NCBI RefSeq assembly: GCF_900105175.1
Contig: NZ_LT629771.1
Span: 5,786,622 to 5,850,621, forward strand
Source of the DNA: Jiangella sp. DSM 45060
Lineage (GTDB): Bacteria; Actinomycetota; Actinomycetes; Jiangellales; Jiangellaceae
Length of the DNA: 64,000 nucleotides
Reading direction: 5' to 3'
The notes beneath the pieces are model-generated. The model was not told the origin of the DNA and searched no databases. It saw only the letters and a list, made by a program, of their open reading frames with translations. The number at the start of each line of letters is the position of its first letter. Positions within the stretch are counted from its first letter, which is position 1. The position numbers were made by a program, and so were the translations under genes. Positions 34,437 through 46,549 of the stretch are shown piece by piece.

Positions 34437-37397
34437 CTAGCGGAACGCGTCGTCAGCGAGTAAGGCAGGCAGCGCGCCCGGATCCGCCAACACCTCCGCC
34501 AGCACCCAGCGCCGCCCCCACTGCCCCGTCGTCCAGGCCAGCCCACGGGCGAGGCCGTCGAGCGTCGCGGCGTGGACGTCGGAGCCGAGGGGCCACCAGG
34601 AGACGGACGTCCCGCCGACCCGCAGGTCGTCGTGTTCCACGTAGGTCGACGGCGCGTCGCCCAGGACGGCGAGAGCGACGTCGGGCACCGGCTGACGACG
34701 GCCGCCGCCGCTGACCGGCGTGGGGTGCGCCTCGGAGGCGAGGTCGACGTCGAGGAGGTCGGCGAGGGCGGCCGGTCCGGGCAGCAGGCCCGGCAGCCCG
34801 AGCTGCAGCCAGTGCGGGCCGTCGCCGACGACGACCGACGCGGCGGGGACGACGCGGGTGCCGACGCCGTCCGGGACGCGGACGCGGTCCGGCGGCTCCA
34901 CACCGGCCGGGTCGTGCGTCACCAGCGCCGCGTACACCCGGGCCAGCGTCGCCGCCGGCAGCTCGAGGTCGTCCTCGGCCAGCCGGTCGAGGACGGCGTC
35001 GGGGTCGAGGTCGGCGGGCGAGCGGGCCAGCCCGACGGCGGCCGCGAACACGTCGTCGACCGGCACGTCGGCCACCGGCAGCAGCGCCCGCACCACGGCG
35101 TCGGCGCCGGCCACCGCCAGCCCGCCCAGCGGCCGGCCGCCGATCCGGGCGTGCCGCCGCAACCACCACGCGGTGTACGACGGCGCCTCCCGCTGCGCGC
35201 CGTCGTAGAGCGTCAACCGCACCGGTGACACGACGGCGGCCCGGGCGTCGTCGTCTGCGGCCAGCCACTCCAGCACCCGCGGCCAGGCGTCGTCGCGGAC
35301 GAGGTCGAGGTCGGCGACGGCGGCGAACTCGCCGGTCAGCGGCGGTACCGGCTGGGCCGGAAGGCCGGCGAGGACGTCGTCGACCCAGCCGTCCTCGTCG
35401 TCGAGATCGTGCCAGGTGTCCGGTTCCAGCGTGACGTCGGTGTCGCGGACGACGGCGAACCCGTCGCGCACGCCGGCGGCCCGCAGCACCGCCGGGCCGA
35501 ACCGGCTGACCAGGTCCGGCGCGACGGTGAACTCGGCCGGGTCGGCGTCGAGTACGGCCAGCAGCCGCGACCCGGGCAGCAGCAGGTCCCGCGCCGGCAC
35601 CGCGGCGCCGGTCGCGTCGGCCAGCGGCAGGCCGGCCAGCCACGGCTCGTCGGCGACGTCGAGGCCGGACTCCGCGAGTAGGCCGAGCACCGCCGCGGCG
35701 ACGGGCGCGGGATCGTCGTCGCTCACGGCGAGGTCGGCGACGGCGCCCTGGACCAGCGGGTCGCGCAGCACCGACGCGGCCGTGGCGTCGACGGCGCCGA
35801 GCCGGTAGAGCAGCGGGTGGACGGCGTCGGGCGCGACCACGCGCAGGTCGAACGGCGCCAGCAATTCCGGGCGCACCTCGCCCGGCACCAGCAGCCCACG
35901 CGGCCCGCGGACCAGCCGTCCGTCGGCCAGCGGCACCGGCAGCGCGCCCAGCGACTCGTGGTCCGACCCGTCCAGCGCGTCGTACACCGCCCGCCACGCG
36001 GCCGGCGCCAGCCGCTCACCGGCCAGGTCGTCGACGACGTCGGCCAGCGGCGTCACCGTGGCGCCGAGCCCGGCCAGCGGATCCGGACGCCACCAGTCGC
36101 GCGCGGGCAGCCCGCGGACGACGCCACCCAGCGCCGCCGGGTCGCCGGTGCGGCTCAGCCCGTCGACCAGCGTCACCTCGGCCGGACGCAGCAGCTCGCC
36201 GTCGGCGCCGGGCACGAACGGCGTCGCCGCCAGCGCCGCCCGGATCGCGCGGTGCAGCACGGCGTCGATCGCCTCCAGCCCCAGCGGCCCCGGCACCAGC
36301 GCCAGCACGGCCGCTCCCGGCGCCGCGGGCCCGAACGACGCGACCAGCCGCGCGTACACCTCACCCGTCTGCTCCGCGAGGTGGTCCAGCAGCGGACCCG
36401 GGACCACGCGGCGGCGGGAGGAGTCCAGCGGCAGCCCGGCGATCACCAGCGCCGGCAGGTCGGTGCGGTCGTCGGTCGGCGTCGGCGCGTGCACCACACC
36501 CGGTAGTGACGACGGCAGCGGGGCCGGCGCGCGCACCCCGGCGTCGTCGCGCACCGGCACCGCGACCGTCACCGTCCATCCCGGGCGCGTGCGCTCCTCG
36601 AACGGCCGGTCCGCCACCAGCTCGTCGGGCGCGACGCCGGTGCGCGTGGCCAGCCGCCACGTCCGGTCGCCGATGCGCCGCTCGGCCAGCCCGTCCGCCA
36701 GCGTCGTCGGCTCGCCGGCCGACAGCCCGCGCACGTCGCCGTCGACGTCCACCACCAGCTCACCCAGCCACGGCAGCGCCAGCAGCAGCGCGTCGTCGAT
36801 CTCAGCGAGCTGCCGGCGCACCAGCCGGACCGCGTCGTCGTCGCGCAGCGGCAGCTCGACCGCGGTGTCGTAGCCCTCGGGCACCGCGCCGGACGCCGGG
36901 AACGGCAGCCGCAGCACCGGTACCGCCTCGCCGCGCCGGGCCAGCTCGGCCGCCAGCGCCGGCACCGACCCGGCCGCCTCCAGCGCGGCGGCGCGCGACC
37001 ACCGCACGCCGCCGCCGGACCCCGTCAGCACCCGCGGCTCGTCGGTGACCGCCAGCACGGCGGCGAACCCGACCCCGAACCGCCCGACGGCGCCGCCGTC
37101 GCGCTTGGTGGACGCGCGCAGCGTCGACAGTCCCTCGACACCGGCGGCGTCGAGCGCCGCGCCGGTGTTGGCGGCGACCAGCGTCGGCCCGGTCAGCCGC
37201 AGCAGCAGCCGCACCGGCCGGCCGGCCCGCGCGCCCGCGTCGGCGGCGTTCTGCGCCAGCTCGACGACCACGCGGTCGCCGTAGGCGCCGCGGGCCAGCT
37301 CGTCCTCGGCGTTGGCGTCCTCGCGGAACCGGGCCGGCGACGCGGACCACGCGGAGAGCACCCGCGAGCGCAGCGCCGCGGTGTCGAAGACGTCCAC
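34437..37397 (-). CDS. Sacsin-like HSP90-type ATPase protein
   Basis: A 986-residue protein with an N-terminal GHKL ATPase domain. The N-box is VVVELAQNAADAGARAG, the G1-like box is ANTGAALDAAGVEGLSTL, and the G2 box is GAVGRFGVGFAAVLAVTDEPR, in the arrangement of the sacsin N-terminal repeat rather than histidine kinases. The remaining ~750 residues have no catalytic motif I recognise and are Asp/Val/Leu-rich. It was chosen on the minus strand because of this domain. It is next to DUF3027, an MFS gene and a cold-shock gene, a conserved actinobacterial neighbourhood of unknown purpose. Chaperone-like ATP-driven clamping is inferred. Confidence 0.82.
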   Translation of the reverse strand: MDVFDTAALRSRVLSAWSASPARFREDANAEDELARGAYGDRVVVELAQNAADAGARAGRPVRLLLRLTGPTLVAANTGAALDAAGVEGLSTLRASTKRDGGAVGRFGVGFAAVLAVTDEPRVLTGSGGGVRWSRAAALEAAGSVPALAAELARRGEAVPVLRLPFPASGAVPEGYDTAVELPLRDDDAVRLVRRQLAEIDDALLLALPWLGELVVDVDGDVRGLSAGEPTTLADGLAERRIGDRTWRLATRTGVAPDELVADRPFEERTRPGWTVTVAVPVRDDAGVRAPAPLPSSLPGVVHAPTPTDDRTDLPALVIAGLPLDSSRRRVVPGPLLDHLAEQTGEVYARLVASFGPAAPGAAVLALVPGPLGLEAIDAVLHRAIRAALAATPFVPGADGELLRPAEVTLVDGLSRTGDPAALGGVVRGLPARDWWRPDPLAGLGATVTPLADVVDDLAGERLAPAAWRAVYDALDGSDHESLGALPVPLADGRLVRGPRGLLVPGEVRPELLAPFDLRVVAPDAVHPLLYRLGAVDATAASVLRDPLVQGAVADLAVSDDDPAPVAAAVLGLLAESGLDVADEPWLAGLPLADATGAAVPARDLLLPGSRLLAVLDADPAEFTVAPDLVSRFGPAVLRAAGVRDGFAVVRDTDVTLEPDTWHDLDDEDGWVDDVLAGLPAQPVPPLTGEFAAVADLDLVRDDAWPRVLEWLAADDDARAAVVSPVRLTLYDGAQREAPSYTAWWLRRHARIGGRPLGGLAVAGADAVVRALLPVADVPVDDVFAAAVGLARSPADLDPDAVLDRLAEDDLELPAATLARVYAALVTHDPAGVEPPDRVRVPDGVGTRVVPAASVVVGDGPHWLQLGLPGLLPGPAALADLLDVDLASEAHPTPVSGGGRRQPVPDVALAVLGDAPSTYVEHDDLRVGGTSVSWWPLGSDVHAATLDGLARGLAWTTGQWGRRWVLAEVLADPGALPALLADDAFR

Positions 37398-39916: not shown

Positions 39917-40300
39917 CTAGAGCTCGAGGTCGTCGGCCACCGCACGCAGCACGGTCGCGACCTGACGCGCCGTGCGCTGGTCGGGGTGCCGGCCGCGGCG
40001 GTAGGTGTTCGACAGGCCGTCGAGCAGCTTGATGAGGTCTTCGACGATGGTGACCATGTCGTCGGGCTTCTTGCGGGTGGCCGCCGACACCGACGGCAGG
40101 GGGTCGAGGACGCGCACCGACAGCGCCTGCTCGCCCCGGCGGCCCTCGGCCACACCGAACTCCACCCGCTGGCCCGGCTTCAGCGCGGACACGCCCGCGG
40201 GCAGCGCGGACGAGTGCACGAAGACGTCGCCGCCGTCGTCCTTGGAGAGGAAGCCGAAGCCCTTCTCGGTGTCGAAAAACTTGACCTTGCCCGTTGGCAC
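39917..40300 (-). CDS. Cold-shock protein with C-terminal extension
   Basis: A 127-residue protein. Residues 1-66 are a cold-shock domain with RNP1 KGFGFLS and RNP2 VFVHSSAL, binding single-stranded RNA or DNA. The following ~60 residues (VTIVEDLIKLLDGLSNTYRRGRHPDQRTARQVATVLRAVADDLEL) form a conserved helical extension typical of this locus in actinobacteria and absent from ordinary CspA. It ends directly against the MFS stop (39916/39917) and starts from an ATG divergent from the HipA-like gene. Confidence 0.9.
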   Translation of the reverse strand: MPTGKVKFFDTEKGFGFLSKDDGGDVFVHSSALPAGVSALKPGQRVEFGVAEGRRGEQALSVRVLDPLPSVSAATRKKPDDMVTIVEDLIKLLDGLSNTYRRGRHPDQRTARQVATVLRAVADDLEL

Positions 40301-40425
40301 GGCTGACCTCTTCGTGTCGGGGGACCAGACCCCTCAAGCCTAAGGCCGACGGAGCCCCGCGGGCCTCTCCAGGGGGCGATCAAATCCGATCGCGTACCGT
40401 CATCGCCCATGGAGGGTTTCCCGCG

Positions 40426-41205
40426 GTGACGGTGCACACGGGGCTGCCCGTCGTGCGCGCGGTCCGCTACGTCGAACCGCTGCGCGAGGGCGGGTCGCTG
40501 CCCGGCCTGGTCGAGGGCGACGACCTCGGCACCTACGTCGTCAAGTTCCGCGGCGCCGGGCAGGGCCCGAAGACGCTGGTCGCGGAGATCGTCGTGGGCG
40601 AGCTGGCCCGCCGGCTGGGCATCCGGGTGCCCGACCTCGTGCTCGTCGACCTCGACGACGCCATCGCGCGGCGCGAACCCGACCCGGAGATCCAGGAGTT
40701 GCTGCTGGCCAGCGTCGGCGTGAACCTCGGCATGGACTTCCTGCCCCGCTCGCTCGGCTACGACGGGCACGGCAAGCAGGCGGACGCCGACGACGCGGCG
40801 AAGGTGCTGTGGCTCGACGCGCTCACCGTCAACGTCGACCGGAGCTGGCGCAACCCGAACCTGCTGACGTGGCACGGGCAGCTGTGGGCGATCGACCACG
40901 GCGCGGCGCTGCTGTTCCAGCACACCTGGCCCGGGGCGCAGGCGTTCGCCGTCCGTCCCTACCCGATCGACGACCACGTGCTGGCGTTCGCCGCCGACCG
41001 GCTGCCGGCCGTCGACGCCGAGCTGGCGCCGCGGGTGACGCCGTCGCTGCTGGCGGAGATCCTGGCGCTGGTCCCGGACGACTGGCTGCCCGAGGTCCCC
41101 GGGCTGGACGGCGCCGGGCCCGACGCCGTCCGCGCCGTCTACGCCGACCACCTCGCGGCCCGCGCCGCGGCCTCGTCGGACTGGCTGCCGGCGGGTGGCG
41201 CGTGA
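40426..41205 (+). CDS. HipA-like kinase-fold protein
   Basis: A 259-residue protein of the stand-alone HipA-like kinase group. It has the nucleotide-binding strand YVVKFRGAGQGPKTLVAEIVVGELARRLG (Lys), the catalytic loop LDALTVNVDRSWRNPNLL (Asp and Asn of the HxDxxxxN pattern) and the metal-binding AIDHGAAL. Unlike toxin HipA it has no HipB partner; it is paired with DUF3037, overlapping by 4 nt. Phosphorylation of a protein target is likely from the residues kept, but the target is unknown. The GTG start is set by GGAGGG 9 nt upstream. Confidence 0.82.
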   Translation: MTVHTGLPVVRAVRYVEPLREGGSLPGLVEGDDLGTYVVKFRGAGQGPKTLVAEIVVGELARRLGIRVPDLVLVDLDDAIARREPDPEIQELLLASVGVNLGMDFLPRSLGYDGHGKQADADDAAKVLWLDALTVNVDRSWRNPNLLTWHGQLWAIDHGAALLFQHTWPGAQAFAVRPYPIDDHVLAFAADRLPAVDAELAPRVTPSLLAEILALVPDDWLPEVPGLDGAGPDAVRAVYADHLAARAAASSDWLPAGGA

Positions 41206-42665: not shown

Positions 42666-45272
42666 TCAGGCGCCGCCCAGGGCGAGGAACGACCACGCGG
42701 TGGCGCGGTCGCGGGCGCCCGCCGCCGCCCGGCGTGCCGCCAGCAGCGCCGCGCCGAGATCGTCGCCGGTGCGCAGCCGCCCGTGCACGACCAGGCTGAG
42801 GTCGACGCTCGCGGCGTCGCTCACCGGGACGACGGTGGCCAGCAGCCCGGCCGTGCCCAGCGCCGACAGCGACGTCGTCAGCCCCAGCAGCTCGTCGGCG
42901 CCGGTGGGCGAGCCGACGCCGGACTCGCACGCCGTCAGCAGCAGGCGGTACGGCGGCGACTGCAGCCGCTCGATGTCGAACACCGTCAGCGGGCCGTCGG
43001 CCAGTTCCAGCGACGAGAACATCGGGTTGTCGCCGCGGTAGCGGCCGTGCGCGCCGATGTGCGCCAGCCACGACCCGTCCAGCGCGGCCAGTGCGGCGTC
43101 GGCGGTGGCGTCGCCGCCGGTCAGCACGGTCGCGTCGGTGTAGACGCCGGCCAGCACGCCGACCTCCGCACCCGACGACGCGAGGTCCGCGCCGGCGATC
43201 AGCGCGACGCTCCTGTCCTTCGGCGGTGTGCTCGTCCGGGCCCGCAGCCAGGCGGTCGCCGACGGCGCCACCGTCACGTCCCTGTCCCGCAGCGCCGGCA
43301 GCGCGCCCCACGGCACCGACTGCATCGTCGACGGCGGCACCAGCACCACCGGCCCGTCCCCCAGCTCGCGGACCGCCGGGCCGAGCATCGTCTCCTGCAG
43401 CCGGGCCAGGCCGGGCTCGGCGGCGGCCAGCAGCACGCCCGCGACGGCATCGGCGGCCACCGCGGCACCGCGCAGCGCGAACTTGGCGTACTCGACCTCA
43501 TCCAGTGCGGCGCCGGAATCGCCCGCGACCACGTGCTTCAACCGGCCCTCACGTGCGACGACGGCGTGGAACCGGCCGCCGCGCAGCCCGACGATGCTGA
43601 CCAGCGTGCGGTCGCCGAGCGCGTCGAGCAGTTCGCCGACGTCGAGCCGGCGGCGGGTGGTCCGCGGGCCGGCGGTCTCCCGGCCGTGCACGTGGCGGCG
43701 GATGCGTTCCTCGATGCGCCGCCGCTCCGCCTCGTCGGCGTGGCTGCCGATGAGGCTGCCGACGGCGCGCAGCCGGCCCAGCTCGGCGGCCAGCTCGGCG
43801 TCGTGGCGGGCGGCCGGCCAGGGCAGCGAGTGCAGCGTGCCGCGCCAGCGCTCGGTCCACCGCAGCAGCTCCCGCGCCGTGCCGTCGACCGCCACCCGCC
43901 GCGTCGCGAGCGCCGCGAGGTCGCTGCCGTGCACCGTCGCGCGGGCCCGCAGCTCCGTCGCGCCGAGCGACAGCGCGTGCGTGTCGAGGACGTCCAGGCC
44001 GCGGCCGCAGGCACGCAGCATCGCCCGGCGGTCGCCCGCGGACTCGGCCAGCAGCGCCTGCGCGTACCAGCCAGTGGCCCGGCGCAACGCCGACCCGCGC
44101 CCGCGGCGTCCGGCCGCCGCCGTCCGCAGCGCCTCCTCCGCCAGCTCCGGCAGCCCCGTGGCCGACGCCAGCCGGCCCGCCAGCACCAGCGCGTCGAGGC
44201 GTTCGGAGGCGTACCGGTCGGTCAGCTCCGCCGCCAGCGCGGCCGCCGCCCGGGCGTGCCGCTTCGTGACGGCGCCGGCCTCGGCCTGCGCCCGCAACAC
44301 CACCACCCGCGCATGCCGCTCCGCGTCGTCGTGTCCCTGCCGGCGGCTCGACCGGGCTGCTCTTCTGGCCAGGTCGGCGGCGCGGCTCGCGTTGCCCGCC
44401 GCGAGGTGCACGATGGCCGCCGCGATGAACCCGTCGGACCTGCGCAGCGCCGAGTCCCTGGCGCCGTCCAGCACCGCCACCAGCTCGTCCGCCGTCCCGG
44501 CCGCGTCCTCGGTCAGCCCGGCCGCCAACTGCACCACCGCGAGGTCGCGCACCACCTCCGGCGGCACCACGCCCAGCTCCTCATACCTGCGGCGCGCGTC
44601 GTAGAGCAGGCGCAGCGCCCGCGGCAGGTCCCCCATCCGGTGCGCGCAGTCGCCCCGATCGTGGACGACGATGGTGGCCAGATAGTGCTGTCCGTCCTCC
44701 TCGGCAAGCGCCTGCGCGCGGGCCAGCTCGCCGTCGGCATCGGTGAACCGGCCGAGTCCGAGCAACGCGGCGGCGAGGTTGATCCTGGCGCGGGATTCCC
44801 ACGCCGAGTCACCGAGCCGGCGCAGGCTCTCCGCCGCCACCCACCCATCCTGCTGGGCCTGCCCGAGATCCCGGAGGACGTACGAGGCCGCCGCCCGGCG
44901 CACCAGGATCCGCGCGCGTTCCAGCGGGCTAGCGGCCACGAGCGCGCTGTCGAAGGCCGCCGTCGCTTCGCGGGCACGGCCGGTCAGCGCCAGGATCGTG
45001 CCGAGGCTCGCCTCCAGGTCGGAGACTCGATCGACCATCCCGTGCTCCCGGCTGAGCCGGATCCCCCGGCGCGCGGTGCGGATGGCACGCGCGTGCTCAC
45101 CTCGCTCCCGCTGGACGATCGCGAGCGCCTGCAGCGCGTAGGTGCGGTCGAGGGCCGGGGCCCGCCGCTCCACGACGGCCTCGGCCAGCACCCGAGCCTC
45201 TTCGGGGCGCGACATCGCCAGCGCGGGCAATTCTTCCGGAGTCACCGCTGCCGACGTGCTTCCCGAGGTCAC
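42666..45272 (-). CDS. CHAT-domain (caspase-like) protease with TPR repeats
   Basis: An 868-residue cytoplasmic protein. Residues ~20-440 are TPR-like helical repeats (for example DRTYALQALAIVQRERGEHARAIRTARRGI and ATAAFDSALVAASPLERARI). Residues ~570-868 are a CHAT domain: LVSIVGLRGGRFHAVVARE starts it, the catalytic His742 is in WLAHIGAHGRYRGDNPMFSSLEL, and Cys782 is in YRLLLTACESGVG. This caspase-like dyad cleaves proteins after activation through the sensor repeats. It is divergent from a cytoplasmic subtilisin gene with only 53 bp between starts, so the two are probably co-regulated. Comparable CHAT proteins act in bacterial immunity and regulated cell death. Confidence 0.88.
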   Translation of the reverse strand: MTSGSTSAAVTPEELPALAMSRPEEARVLAEAVVERRAPALDRTYALQALAIVQRERGEHARAIRTARRGIRLSREHGMVDRVSDLEASLGTILALTGRAREATAAFDSALVAASPLERARILVRRAAASYVLRDLGQAQQDGWVAAESLRRLGDSAWESRARINLAAALLGLGRFTDADGELARAQALAEEDGQHYLATIVVHDRGDCAHRMGDLPRALRLLYDARRRYEELGVVPPEVVRDLAVVQLAAGLTEDAAGTADELVAVLDGARDSALRRSDGFIAAAIVHLAAGNASRAADLARRAARSSRRQGHDDAERHARVVVLRAQAEAGAVTKRHARAAAALAAELTDRYASERLDALVLAGRLASATGLPELAEEALRTAAAGRRGRGSALRRATGWYAQALLAESAGDRRAMLRACGRGLDVLDTHALSLGATELRARATVHGSDLAALATRRVAVDGTARELLRWTERWRGTLHSLPWPAARHDAELAAELGRLRAVGSLIGSHADEAERRRIEERIRRHVHGRETAGPRTTRRRLDVGELLDALGDRTLVSIVGLRGGRFHAVVAREGRLKHVVAGDSGAALDEVEYAKFALRGAAVAADAVAGVLLAAAEPGLARLQETMLGPAVRELGDGPVVLVPPSTMQSVPWGALPALRDRDVTVAPSATAWLRARTSTPPKDRSVALIAGADLASSGAEVGVLAGVYTDATVLTGGDATADAALAALDGSWLAHIGAHGRYRGDNPMFSSLELADGPLTVFDIERLQSPPYRLLLTACESGVGSPTGADELLGLTTSLSALGTAGLLATVVPVSDAASVDLSLVVHGRLRTGDDLGAALLAARRAAAGARDRATAWSFLALGGA

Positions 45273-45325
45273 GCCCTGATGCTAGACATGTAGTCGTTTG
45301 CCCGAATCATGGCTGGGGGAATCCG

Positions 45326-46549
45326 ATGCAACCAGACCGCGAACGACTTCACCAGGAGTTCGAGAGACTCCGCGACAACAGCGCGCGACGCACGAAGGAC
45401 CGGGGATTCGAGCTCGCCGCACGATGGAACCGGGACGAGACCGCGATCGAATACCTGTACCGACAGGGTCAGCTGATCTGCGACGAGCGCGATCTCGACA
45501 CCGTTCTCGAGGCGTTCGATCAGTTGCGCCTGGACCGTCCCGAGGTGACGGAGGGACCGGTCGGCCTCGCCGTCCTGCACGTCCCGGACACCGACGCTGC
45601 CGAGATCGCCGCCAAGCTCGCTGAGGTGCTGGGCGACGAGCGCCTCGTCGCGCCCAACCACGTCCTCGACGCGCAGGTGCACGTCGCCATGTGCCCGGCC
45701 ACCGAGCCGGTGCCGGCGTATGGCCCGATCCCGGTGCTGGGCGAACCGGTCGGCCCCGGCCGGCCGAGGGTCGCCGTCGTCGATACGGGGTACTTCCCCG
45801 AGGCCGGGATCGACTCCGGTTTCAGCCGGTTCTCGGCGGTGAAGAAGTACGAGATCGACGACGACGTCTATGTGCCGGGTACGGACGAGATCCGGCCGTA
45901 CGGGGGTCACGGCACGGCGACGACGGCCCGGCTGCTGGCGGTGTCCGGCGCCGAGGGTGTCGAGGTCGAGGTCCGCGACTGCCTGCTCGGCGGCGCGGTG
46001 GACGAGCTGGCGATCGTCGAGGACCTGGAGAAGGTCATCAAGGGCGGCGCCAACGTCGTCAGCGTCCAGGCGGGCCTCTATGCCCGGCCGGGCAACACGC
46101 CCAAGTCGTTCGACCTGCTCTACCGACGCGTCGTGAGCAAGCACCCGGACACCGTCATCGTCGCGGCTGCGGGCAACCACGGCACCGACGTCCCGTTCTG
46201 GCCGGCCGCGTACAGCTGGGTGACGGCCATCGGCGCGCTCACGACCGGTGGCGACTACCGGGCGCCGTGGAGCAACTTCGGCTACTGGGTCGACGCCTAC
46301 ACGCCGGGCGAGAGCACCGTCATCCCCTACCCGAACGGCCGGTACGACTACATCGACGAGACCTCGGCGCGGTTCAGCAACGGGCACGCCATCTGGTCCG
46401 GCACGTCGTTCGCGGCGCCGGTCGTGGCGGGGCTGATCGCTCGCCGGATGATCGAGCGCGAGGTGTCCGCCCCGGTCGCGCGGCACCTCGTGCTGCAGGA
46501 GGCGGCCATCGGCGCGCTGCACCACACCGGCCCGAGGCTCATCGTCTGA
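45326..46549 (+). CDS. Cytoplasmic subtilisin-like (S8) serine protease
   Basis: A 407-residue S8 peptidase without a signal peptide. The catalytic triad is intact: Asp153 in VAVVDTGYF, His195 in GGHGTATTA, and Ser361 in SGTSFAAPVVAG, with oxyanion Asn284 in AAAGNHG. Residues 1-140 are a non-catalytic N-terminal part (QEFERLRDNSARRTKDRGFELAARWNRDETAIEYLYR ... LAVLHVPDTDAAEIAAKLAE) that could be an inhibitory prodomain or a sensor, rather than a secretion propeptide. It is paired divergently with the CHAT protease, and a strong terminator follows. Confidence 0.88.
   Translation: MQPDRERLHQEFERLRDNSARRTKDRGFELAARWNRDETAIEYLYRQGQLICDERDLDTVLEAFDQLRLDRPEVTEGPVGLAVLHVPDTDAAEIAAKLAEVLGDERLVAPNHVLDAQVHVAMCPATEPVPAYGPIPVLGEPVGPGRPRVAVVDTGYFPEAGIDSGFSRFSAVKKYEIDDDVYVPGTDEIRPYGGHGTATTARLLAVSGAEGVEVEVRDCLLGGAVDELAIVEDLEKVIKGGANVVSVQAGLYARPGNTPKSFDLLYRRVVSKHPDTVIVAAAGNHGTDVPFWPAAYSWVTAIGALTTGGDYRAPWSNFGYWVDAYTPGESTVIPYPNGRYDYIDETSARFSNGHAIWSGTSFAAPVVAGLIARRMIEREVSAPVARHLVLQEAAIGALHHTGPRLIV

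What the first reader, a model, noticed from the sequence alone, without database searches (positions are those of the whole stretch)
42666..46549. Divergent CHAT-caspase/TPR protein and cytoplasmic subtilisin: candidate two-protease system
Two intracellular proteases with complete catalytic residues (His742/Cys782; Asp153/His195/Ser361) share a 53-bp promoter region. CHAT-TPR proteins are sensors cleaving partner proteins in bacterial immunity; here the partner may be the subtilisin, whose ~140-residue N-terminal part could be a cleavable inhibitor.
Basis: partly seen in the sequence, partly recalled or inferred. Interest (0 to 1): 0.75.

Follow-up and report, generated by a model that had tools for sequence, protein, structure and literature searches.

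The report
Two-protease arm of sigma-factor switch
Two neighbouring intracellular proteases in a soil actinobacterium are a conserved pair that, in the sampled genomes, always keeps company with a transcription sigma factor and a small two-domain protein, so they probably belong to a protease-driven gene switch rather than being a stand-alone pair.

Summary
Confirmed: a CHAT-TPR protease (868 aa, minus strand) and a cytoplasmic subtilase (407 aa, plus strand) lie divergently, 53 bp apart, with complete catalytic residues. The pairing is conserved: 45 of 51 homologous CHAT loci in 47 other Actinomycetota genomes, and all 6 fetched Jiangella loci, have a subtilase near CHAT. Of 21 regions around other CHAT genes only 4 have one, those whose CHAT scores high with this family's profile. 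In 37 both lie within 9 kb; in the window's genome they sit together 3.5 Mb away. A review already names subtilase, CHAT and carboxypeptidase genes around 'ECF54' sigma factors, so the association is in print; mechanism is untested. Best reading: CHAT, on an unknown signal, cuts the small protein and frees sigma, as Csx29/Csx30/CASP-sigma does; the subtilase assists or is output. CHAT activating the subtilase is less likely: its N-terminal part looks like an ordinary subtilisin propeptide, and one family seems to export its subtilase. The few tests run gave no sign of phage defence.

The parts
42666..45272 (-). CHAT-TPR cysteine protease, 868 aa (GTG start)
   Evidence: ORF and translation; Pfam CHAT above cut-off
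42678..43406 (-). CHAT domain, residues 623-865, with His742 (codon 43047-43049) and Cys782 (codon 42927-42929)
   Evidence: Pfam match; His and Cys conserved in 175 and 174 of 177 rows, rest gaps
44577..44792 (-). best TPR stretch, residues 161-232, within the N-terminal part
   Evidence: Pfam TPR_12, 25.1 bits, below its cut-off of 30.1
45273..45325 (.). 53-bp divergent intergenic region
   Evidence: sequence; conserved in 6 other Jiangella; no promoter dyad shared with the sigma gene above chance
45326..46549 (+). cytoplasmic subtilase (S8), 407 aa
   Evidence: ORF; Pfam S8 above cut-off
45446..45667 (+). subtilisin-type propeptide domain, residues 41-114
   Evidence: AlphaFold2 pLDDT 93.6 overall, beta-alpha-beta-beta-alpha-beta order; best structural match is an unprocessed pro-subtilisin, aligned from residue 47
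45692..45709 (+). CPATEP motif, residues 123-128, between propeptide and catalytic domain
   Evidence: C123 and P124 invariant in the 64 sequences of alignment A3; other lineages differ, e.g. CPGDEP in Streptomyces
45767..46450 (+). S8 catalytic domain, residues 148-375; Asp153 (45782-45784), His195 (45908-45910), Ser361 (46406-46408)
   Evidence: Pfam match; triad conservation

Best explanation
The pair is the protease half of a four-component sigma-factor switch spread through Actinomycetota. The other half, an ECF sigma factor (ECF54-like by context) and a small two-domain protein, lies 3.5 Mb away in this genome and beside the proteases in most others. Shown here: the family relations, conserved CHAT-subtilase adjacency, and co-occurrence of the genes in every CHAT genome of the sample. 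Inferred: the small protein holds sigma silent through its N-terminal helices; an unknown signal read by the TPR part activates CHAT; CHAT cuts the small protein, most likely in its disordered linker at the invariant Arg, and sigma is freed to change transcription. The subtilase, made as a self-processing zymogen, either clears the cut inhibitor or is the protease output of the response.
For: 48 of 48 CHAT genomes among 396 have both the small protein (E up to 1e-5) and a sigma match of at least 140 bits; 52 and 53 of the 396 genomes have these at all; at genus level 29 of 29. Sigma lies within 9 kb of CHAT in 37 of 48 genomes and the small gene in the same 37. In the 11 others sigma and small gene are adjacent to each other in 10, the window's genome included. 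All 6 other Jiangella genomes carry the small gene. Of 21 regions around other CHAT genes, S8 is present in the 4 with high-scoring CHAT and in none of 17 others; 3 of those 4 also have sigma and small gene. Small protein: helices 2-49, linker with pLDDT under 50 at 52-60, beta-sandwich from 65; Arg58 in 62 of 62 rows and in 13 of 14 diverse ones. Precedents, read as passages: Csx29 (TPR-CHAT) cuts Csx30, an inhibitor of an ECF sigma (PMC10028731); CalpL cuts anti-sigma CalpT (PMC11417357).
Against: No binding or cleavage was computed or measured. The small protein's N-terminal part was barely tested by fold search, so 'anti-sigma' rests on linkage and precedent. For Csx30 the inter-domain linker was also suspected, but the true site was a loop in the C-terminal domain. 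One of 14 diverse small proteins lacks the Arg. No promoter motif shared by the sigma gene and the CHAT-S8 gap was found in Jiangella. The review that names the ECF54 context proposes the reverse: proteolysis of sigma itself, without an anti-sigma factor (PMC8999054 section 3.3). G381 and G382 have sigma without a small-gene or CHAT match; G269, G318 and G386 have sigma and small gene without a CHAT match. Two CHAT loci, L052 and L056, have no S8 though the contig continues.
Confidence: 0.5

Rival explanations
1. CHAT activates the subtilase by cutting off or cutting within its N-terminal part: a direct CHAT-to-S8 cascade, with the sigma factor downstream of the subtilase or independent.
For: CHAT and S8 stay together in 9 of the 11 genomes where sigma is not near CHAT (the other two are G236, no S8 found, and G308, contig end). 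The CPATEP stretch between propeptide and catalytic domain is conserved in close relatives. SAVED-CHAT works through a cascade of proteolytic activity (one passage of PMC11229360).
Against: The N-terminal part matches propeptides of known pro-subtilisins. CPATEP is not kept across the CHAT-linked S8s. In family f19 all 17 S8 rows have export-type N-termini and group apart in the S8 tree.
Confidence: 0.15
2. The proteases keep the ECF sigma factor low by degrading it, without an anti-sigma factor (the reading in the review for group ECF54); the small protein is an adaptor or sensor.
For: Stated for ECF54 in PMC8999054 section 3.3. The genes co-occur.
Against: It gives no clear role to the small protein, present in all 48 CHAT genomes and carrying an isolated invariant Arg in a disordered linker. 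An exported S8, as in f19, could hardly degrade sigma.
Confidence: 0.2
3. The subtilase is only an output gene of the sigma regulon (intracellular, or secreted in f19), and CHAT plus the small protein are the switch.
For: Two separate S8 groups, one cytosolic and one export-type, sit at the same kind of locus. In L052 no S8 was found and a NAL1-type gene lies in the divergent position.
Against: S8 stays with CHAT in 9 of the 11 genomes where sigma is elsewhere. No shared promoter dyad was found in Jiangella.
Confidence: 0.25

Closest known systems
ECF54 sigma-factor context (PMC8999054, section 3.3 and passages read; primary papers not held, not read)
   Same: ECF sigma factor with subtilase, CHAT and 'carboxypeptidase' genes around it
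   Different: Here the proteases are unlinked from sigma; the third gene is a small protein that only weakly matches a carboxypeptidase-regulatory beta-sandwich (below cut-off) and matched no peptidase family; co-occurrence counts, two S8 groups and a substrate candidate are added
Type III-E Csx29/Csx30/CASP-sigma (PMC10028731, abstract and passages read)
   Same: TPR-CHAT protease, two-domain inhibitor protein, ECF sigma factor
   Different: No CRISPR-like array found by script in 59 sequences; Csx29 model matched at 14.6 bits against a cut-off of 300; a subtilase is added
CalpL/CalpT/CalpS (PMC11417357, passages read)
   Same: protease cuts an anti-sigma factor holding an ECF sigma
   Different: Lon protease with SAVED sensor, not CHAT-TPR; no subtilase mentioned in the passages read
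IetAS defence subtilase (IetS in PADLOC; IteS in NCBIfam)
   Same: S8 protein with a long N-terminal part
   Different: window protein 13.9 bits against cut-off 900; here the neighbour is CHAT (that IetS pairs with an ATPase is recalled)

Membership tests
CHAT proteases (PF12770) | CHAT domain over curated cut-off | tested here: met
   78.1 bits against 24
CHAT proteases (PF12770) | His-Cys dyad | tested here: met
   His742 and Cys782 present; conserved in 175 and 174 of 177 rows, rest gaps
Subtilases (S8) | S8 domain over cut-off and Asp-His-Ser triad | tested here: met
   59 bits against 21.8; triad
Subtilases (S8) | N-terminal propeptide domain | tested here: met
ECF54 sigma system | ECF-type sigma factor | tested here: met
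   sigma in the window's genome: TIGR02937 71.3 bits against 42.9; a Streptomyces one 59.6
ECF54 sigma system | CHAT, subtilase and carboxypeptidase-type genes in the sigma gene's context | tested here: met
   met for the family: sigma and small gene within 9 kb of CHAT in 37 of 48 genomes; not met for the window's own locus, where they are 3.5 Mb apart; small genes match PF13620 only below cut-off
ECF54 sigma system | match to the published ECF54 model | not testable with these tools
   model not at hand and primary paper not held
Type III-E Craspase (Csx29) | Csx29 equivalog score | tested here: not met
   14.6 bits against cut-off 300; PDB 'CHAT domain protein' chains (recalled to be Csx29) match at E about 0.1
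Type III-E Craspase (Csx29) | CRISPR array nearby | tested here: not met
   none in 59 sequences by a script for three exact 20-mers 45-90 bp apart
Type III-E Craspase (Csx29) | Cas7-11 gene nearby | not tested
   no Cas7-11 model was run on the loci
Anti-sigma factor (small protein) | co-encoded with its sigma factor | tested here: met
   both in 48 of 48 CHAT genomes; adjacent in 10 of the 11 genomes where they are not near CHAT
Anti-sigma factor (small protein) | binds sigma | not testable with these tools
   no complex prediction
Anti-sigma factor (small protein) | known anti-sigma fold | tested here: inconclusive
   fold search covered residues 63-151 only
Known anti-phage systems (PADLOC) | model matches | tested here: inconclusive
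   window CHAT none, window subtilase generic 23.2 bits; relatives: generic subtilase, weak IetS and TPR matches
IetAS | IetS equivalog score | tested here: not met
   13.9 bits against 900
Protease-activated gasdermin systems | gasdermin gene beside the protease | not tested
   recurring neighbours were listed but no gasdermin model was run

The most novel reading that the evidence does not exclude
A widespread CRISPR-independent relative, in working principle, of Craspase: a caspase-type CHAT sensor protease, with a dedicated second protease, that releases an ECF sigma factor by cutting a small two-domain inhibitor at an invariant Arg. It would be a bacterial two-protease signalling cascade keyed to an intracellular signal, of which CRISPR systems use a version.
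Probability: 0.35. Interest if true: 0.8.

Novelty: new variant of a known kind. Interest (0 to 1): 0.6.

Why it matters
It turns a two-gene guess into a testable four-component circuit, found with CHAT in 48 of 396 sampled Actinomycetota genomes, names a candidate substrate and residue, and offers a setting without CRISPR in which to ask how CHAT-TPR proteases came to control ECF sigma factors and what they sense.

Tried and rejected
Direct CHAT-to-subtilase activation as the main mechanism: lowered, because the N-terminal part is propeptide-like and one family has export-type S8s. Mobile defence island: plasmid and phage collections gave one partial match each; viral contigs were not scanned. 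CRISPR link: no array by script in 59 sequences.

Shared promoter between the sigma gene and the CHAT-S8 gap: 3 and 1 near matches against 2.2 and 1.6 in column shuffles; dropped. A Streptomyces inverted repeat in the CHAT-S8 gap is not seen in Jiangella; not pursued.

Literature: ten searches listed no experimental paper on this pair that I recognised; of the papers opened, only the review PMC8999054 names the context. Passages only were seen of PMC10952713, PMC12881547, PMC7159879, PMC12891184, PMC10910872, PMC12669027, none of which gave the pair; PMC8195603 was not opened (one search failed). Most subscription papers and preprints are not in that library, and the ECF reclassification paper is not held. 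The SAVED-CHAT cascade paper was not read; it is cited through PMC11229360.

Limits: co-occurrence rests on one evenly drawn sample of 396 genomes of one phylum, and the first look scored only 2 (CHAT), 8 (small protein) and 7 (sigma) candidates per genome. Among the 11 genomes with sigma away from CHAT, G152 and G345 look like contig breaks and G042 and G162 have a second, complete copy with sigma nearby; the clean single-contig cases are G000 and G118. For the CHAT control, 25 of 32 CHAT places outside the first list were covered; 7 were not fetched. The S8 tree used 40 of 317 S8 matches as background, chosen by hand, of which 31 passed the coverage filter; it was midpoint-rooted and printed no support. 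The CHAT structure was not predicted. Distribution outside Actinomycetota was not examined.
Full report
What is there. The window (genome G000, window at C1:5786622-5850621) comes from a Jiangella or a very near relative: the best named matches are Jiangella loci and proteins. The catalytic residues are present and conserved. Neighbours in the window are a HAD hydrolase and an MFS transporter, with no evident link.

Is the pairing real? Six Jiangella loci all have the divergent pair (in L006 CHAT is cut by the contig end). A search of 396 Actinomycetota genomes with the subtilase found 7 with E up to 1e-20 (the window's own included), and in all 7 the CHAT relative is next to it. The same sample searched with CHAT gave 48 genomes. 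I fetched all 51 loci of the 47 other genomes: 45 of 51 have an S8 gene near CHAT, 20 divergent, 13 CHAT then S8, 12 S8 then CHAT, in 25 of 28 genera. The aligned parts lie less than 2 kb apart in 44 of these 45 and 4.1 kb apart in L067; in some, other genes lie between. Among the six misses CHAT runs to, or ends within 160 bp of, a contig end in three (L066, L086, L088); L089 has a fragment that looks by eye like an S8 propeptide; L052 and L056 lack S8, and L052 has a NAL1-type gene in the divergent place. S8 density is 317 matches in 32 genomes, about 165 Mb, so about 0.03 are expected per 15 kb.

Specificity control. In 26 of the genomes I listed the CHAT genes; 32 of the 60 places were outside the first list, and 25 of them are covered by 20 newly fetched regions and the second CHAT region of the window's own genome. 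S8 genes were found in 4 of these 21 regions, exactly the 4 whose CHAT scores high (261 bits or more) with this family's profile; in the other 17 the CHAT scores about 140 bits or less, or not at all, and no S8 was found. The pairing belongs to this CHAT family, not to CHAT genes at large.

The missing partners. Recurring neighbours of the pair were an ECF-type sigma factor gene (33 loci, 20 genera; one similarity cluster, which may hold a few false members) and small genes in two clusters (15 loci each). The sigma genes tested match Sigma70_r2, and two of them TIGR02937 over its cut-off. The small proteins match CarboxypepD_reg only weakly or not at all. In the Jiangella loci neither was found beside the pair, but the window's genome has a sigma gene, 41% identical to the Streptomyces one, at about C1:2293008-2293706 with the small gene directly downstream at C1:2292541-2292993, about 3.5 Mb from the proteases. 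Six of six other Jiangella genomes also have the small gene.

Co-occurrence. All 48 CHAT genomes have both; extra genomes are G007 (marginal), G269, G318 and G386 for the small gene, and G269, G318, G386, G381 and G382 for sigma. At genus level 29 of 29. Fisher tests give p-values below 1e-33, but species are related, so the counts matter more. In 37 genomes sigma and small gene lie within 9 kb of CHAT. Of the 11 others, 2 are single-contig and clean (G000; G118, 1.17 Mb apart), 2 look like contig breaks (G152, G345) and 2 have a second copy with sigma near it (G042, G162). In 10 of these 11 sigma and small gene are adjacent to each other, and in 9 of 11 S8 is still with CHAT. So there seem to be two cassettes, protease pair and sigma-small pair, that can separate physically but were found together in every CHAT genome.

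Two kinds of subtilase. By a simple hydropathy scan all 17 S8 rows of family f19 have an export-type N-terminal stretch (1.91 or more) and none of the 36 other rows does (1.53 or less). In a tree with 31 background S8s the cytosolic CHAT-linked S8s group apart from all background sequences, while the f19 ones form a second group on the background side. A mechanism that needs CHAT to cut S8 in the cytosol is therefore unlikely to be general.

Mechanism. A TPR-CHAT protease that cuts a two-domain inhibitor of an ECF sigma factor is known from type III-E CRISPR (PMC10028731; abstract and passages), and CalpL/T/S does the same with a Lon protease (PMC11417357, passages). The parts here fit that plan without a CRISPR array in sight. 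I therefore propose that CHAT cuts the small protein, perhaps at Arg58, and frees sigma, with the subtilase clearing the cut inhibitor or serving as output. Steps shown: genes, co-occurrence, predicted folds, conserved residues. Steps inferred: binding, cleavage, direction of control, signal. A caution from the same paper: in Csx30 the suspected linker was not the cleavage site.

What is known. PMC8999054 section 3.3 (read) states that group ECF54 has conserved carboxypeptidase, subtilase and CHAT proteins in its genetic context and proposes proteolytic control of sigma without an anti-sigma factor. The association is therefore in print; I could not test the ECF54 model itself. What I did not find in print, in the ten searches listed under Tried and rejected, is the split arrangement, the co-occurrence counts, the small protein as candidate substrate, or an experiment on the pair.

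Noticed in passing
L052:5335-6906 (-): NAL1-type gene (PF25608, 18.7 bits, below cut-off) divergent from CHAT where relatives have S8; possible replacement of the serine protease.
   Followed up: partly
L047, L050, L053 (CHAT-S8 gap): Streptomyces CHAT-S8 gaps hold, by eye, an inverted repeat TCAATC...GATTGA; possible operator or paired promoters, not seen in Jiangella.
   Followed up: no
L081:8964-10787, L087:3621-5621, L091:8764-10656: PAS-GGDEF-EAL gene directly after the export-type S8 in three f19 loci, a possible cyclic-di-GMP link.
   Followed up: no
L004:7319-8596, L005:7306-8600, L007:7225-8964: Second S8 gene in tandem after the first in some Jiangella; the copies in L005 and L007 are split over reading frames.
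   Followed up: no
G097 (contigs C2, C7, C15, C16, C22, C32, C47): Eight CHAT genes in one 4.2-Mb genome, three of them with S8 nearby.
   Followed up: partly
window 40294-41205 (+): HipA-like kinase (PF20613, 44.2 bits against 27) about 1.5 kb from the CHAT gene.
   Followed up: no
window 34437-37397 (-): 986-aa protein with a sacsin-type domain (PF25794, 34.5 bits against 32.8).
   Followed up: no
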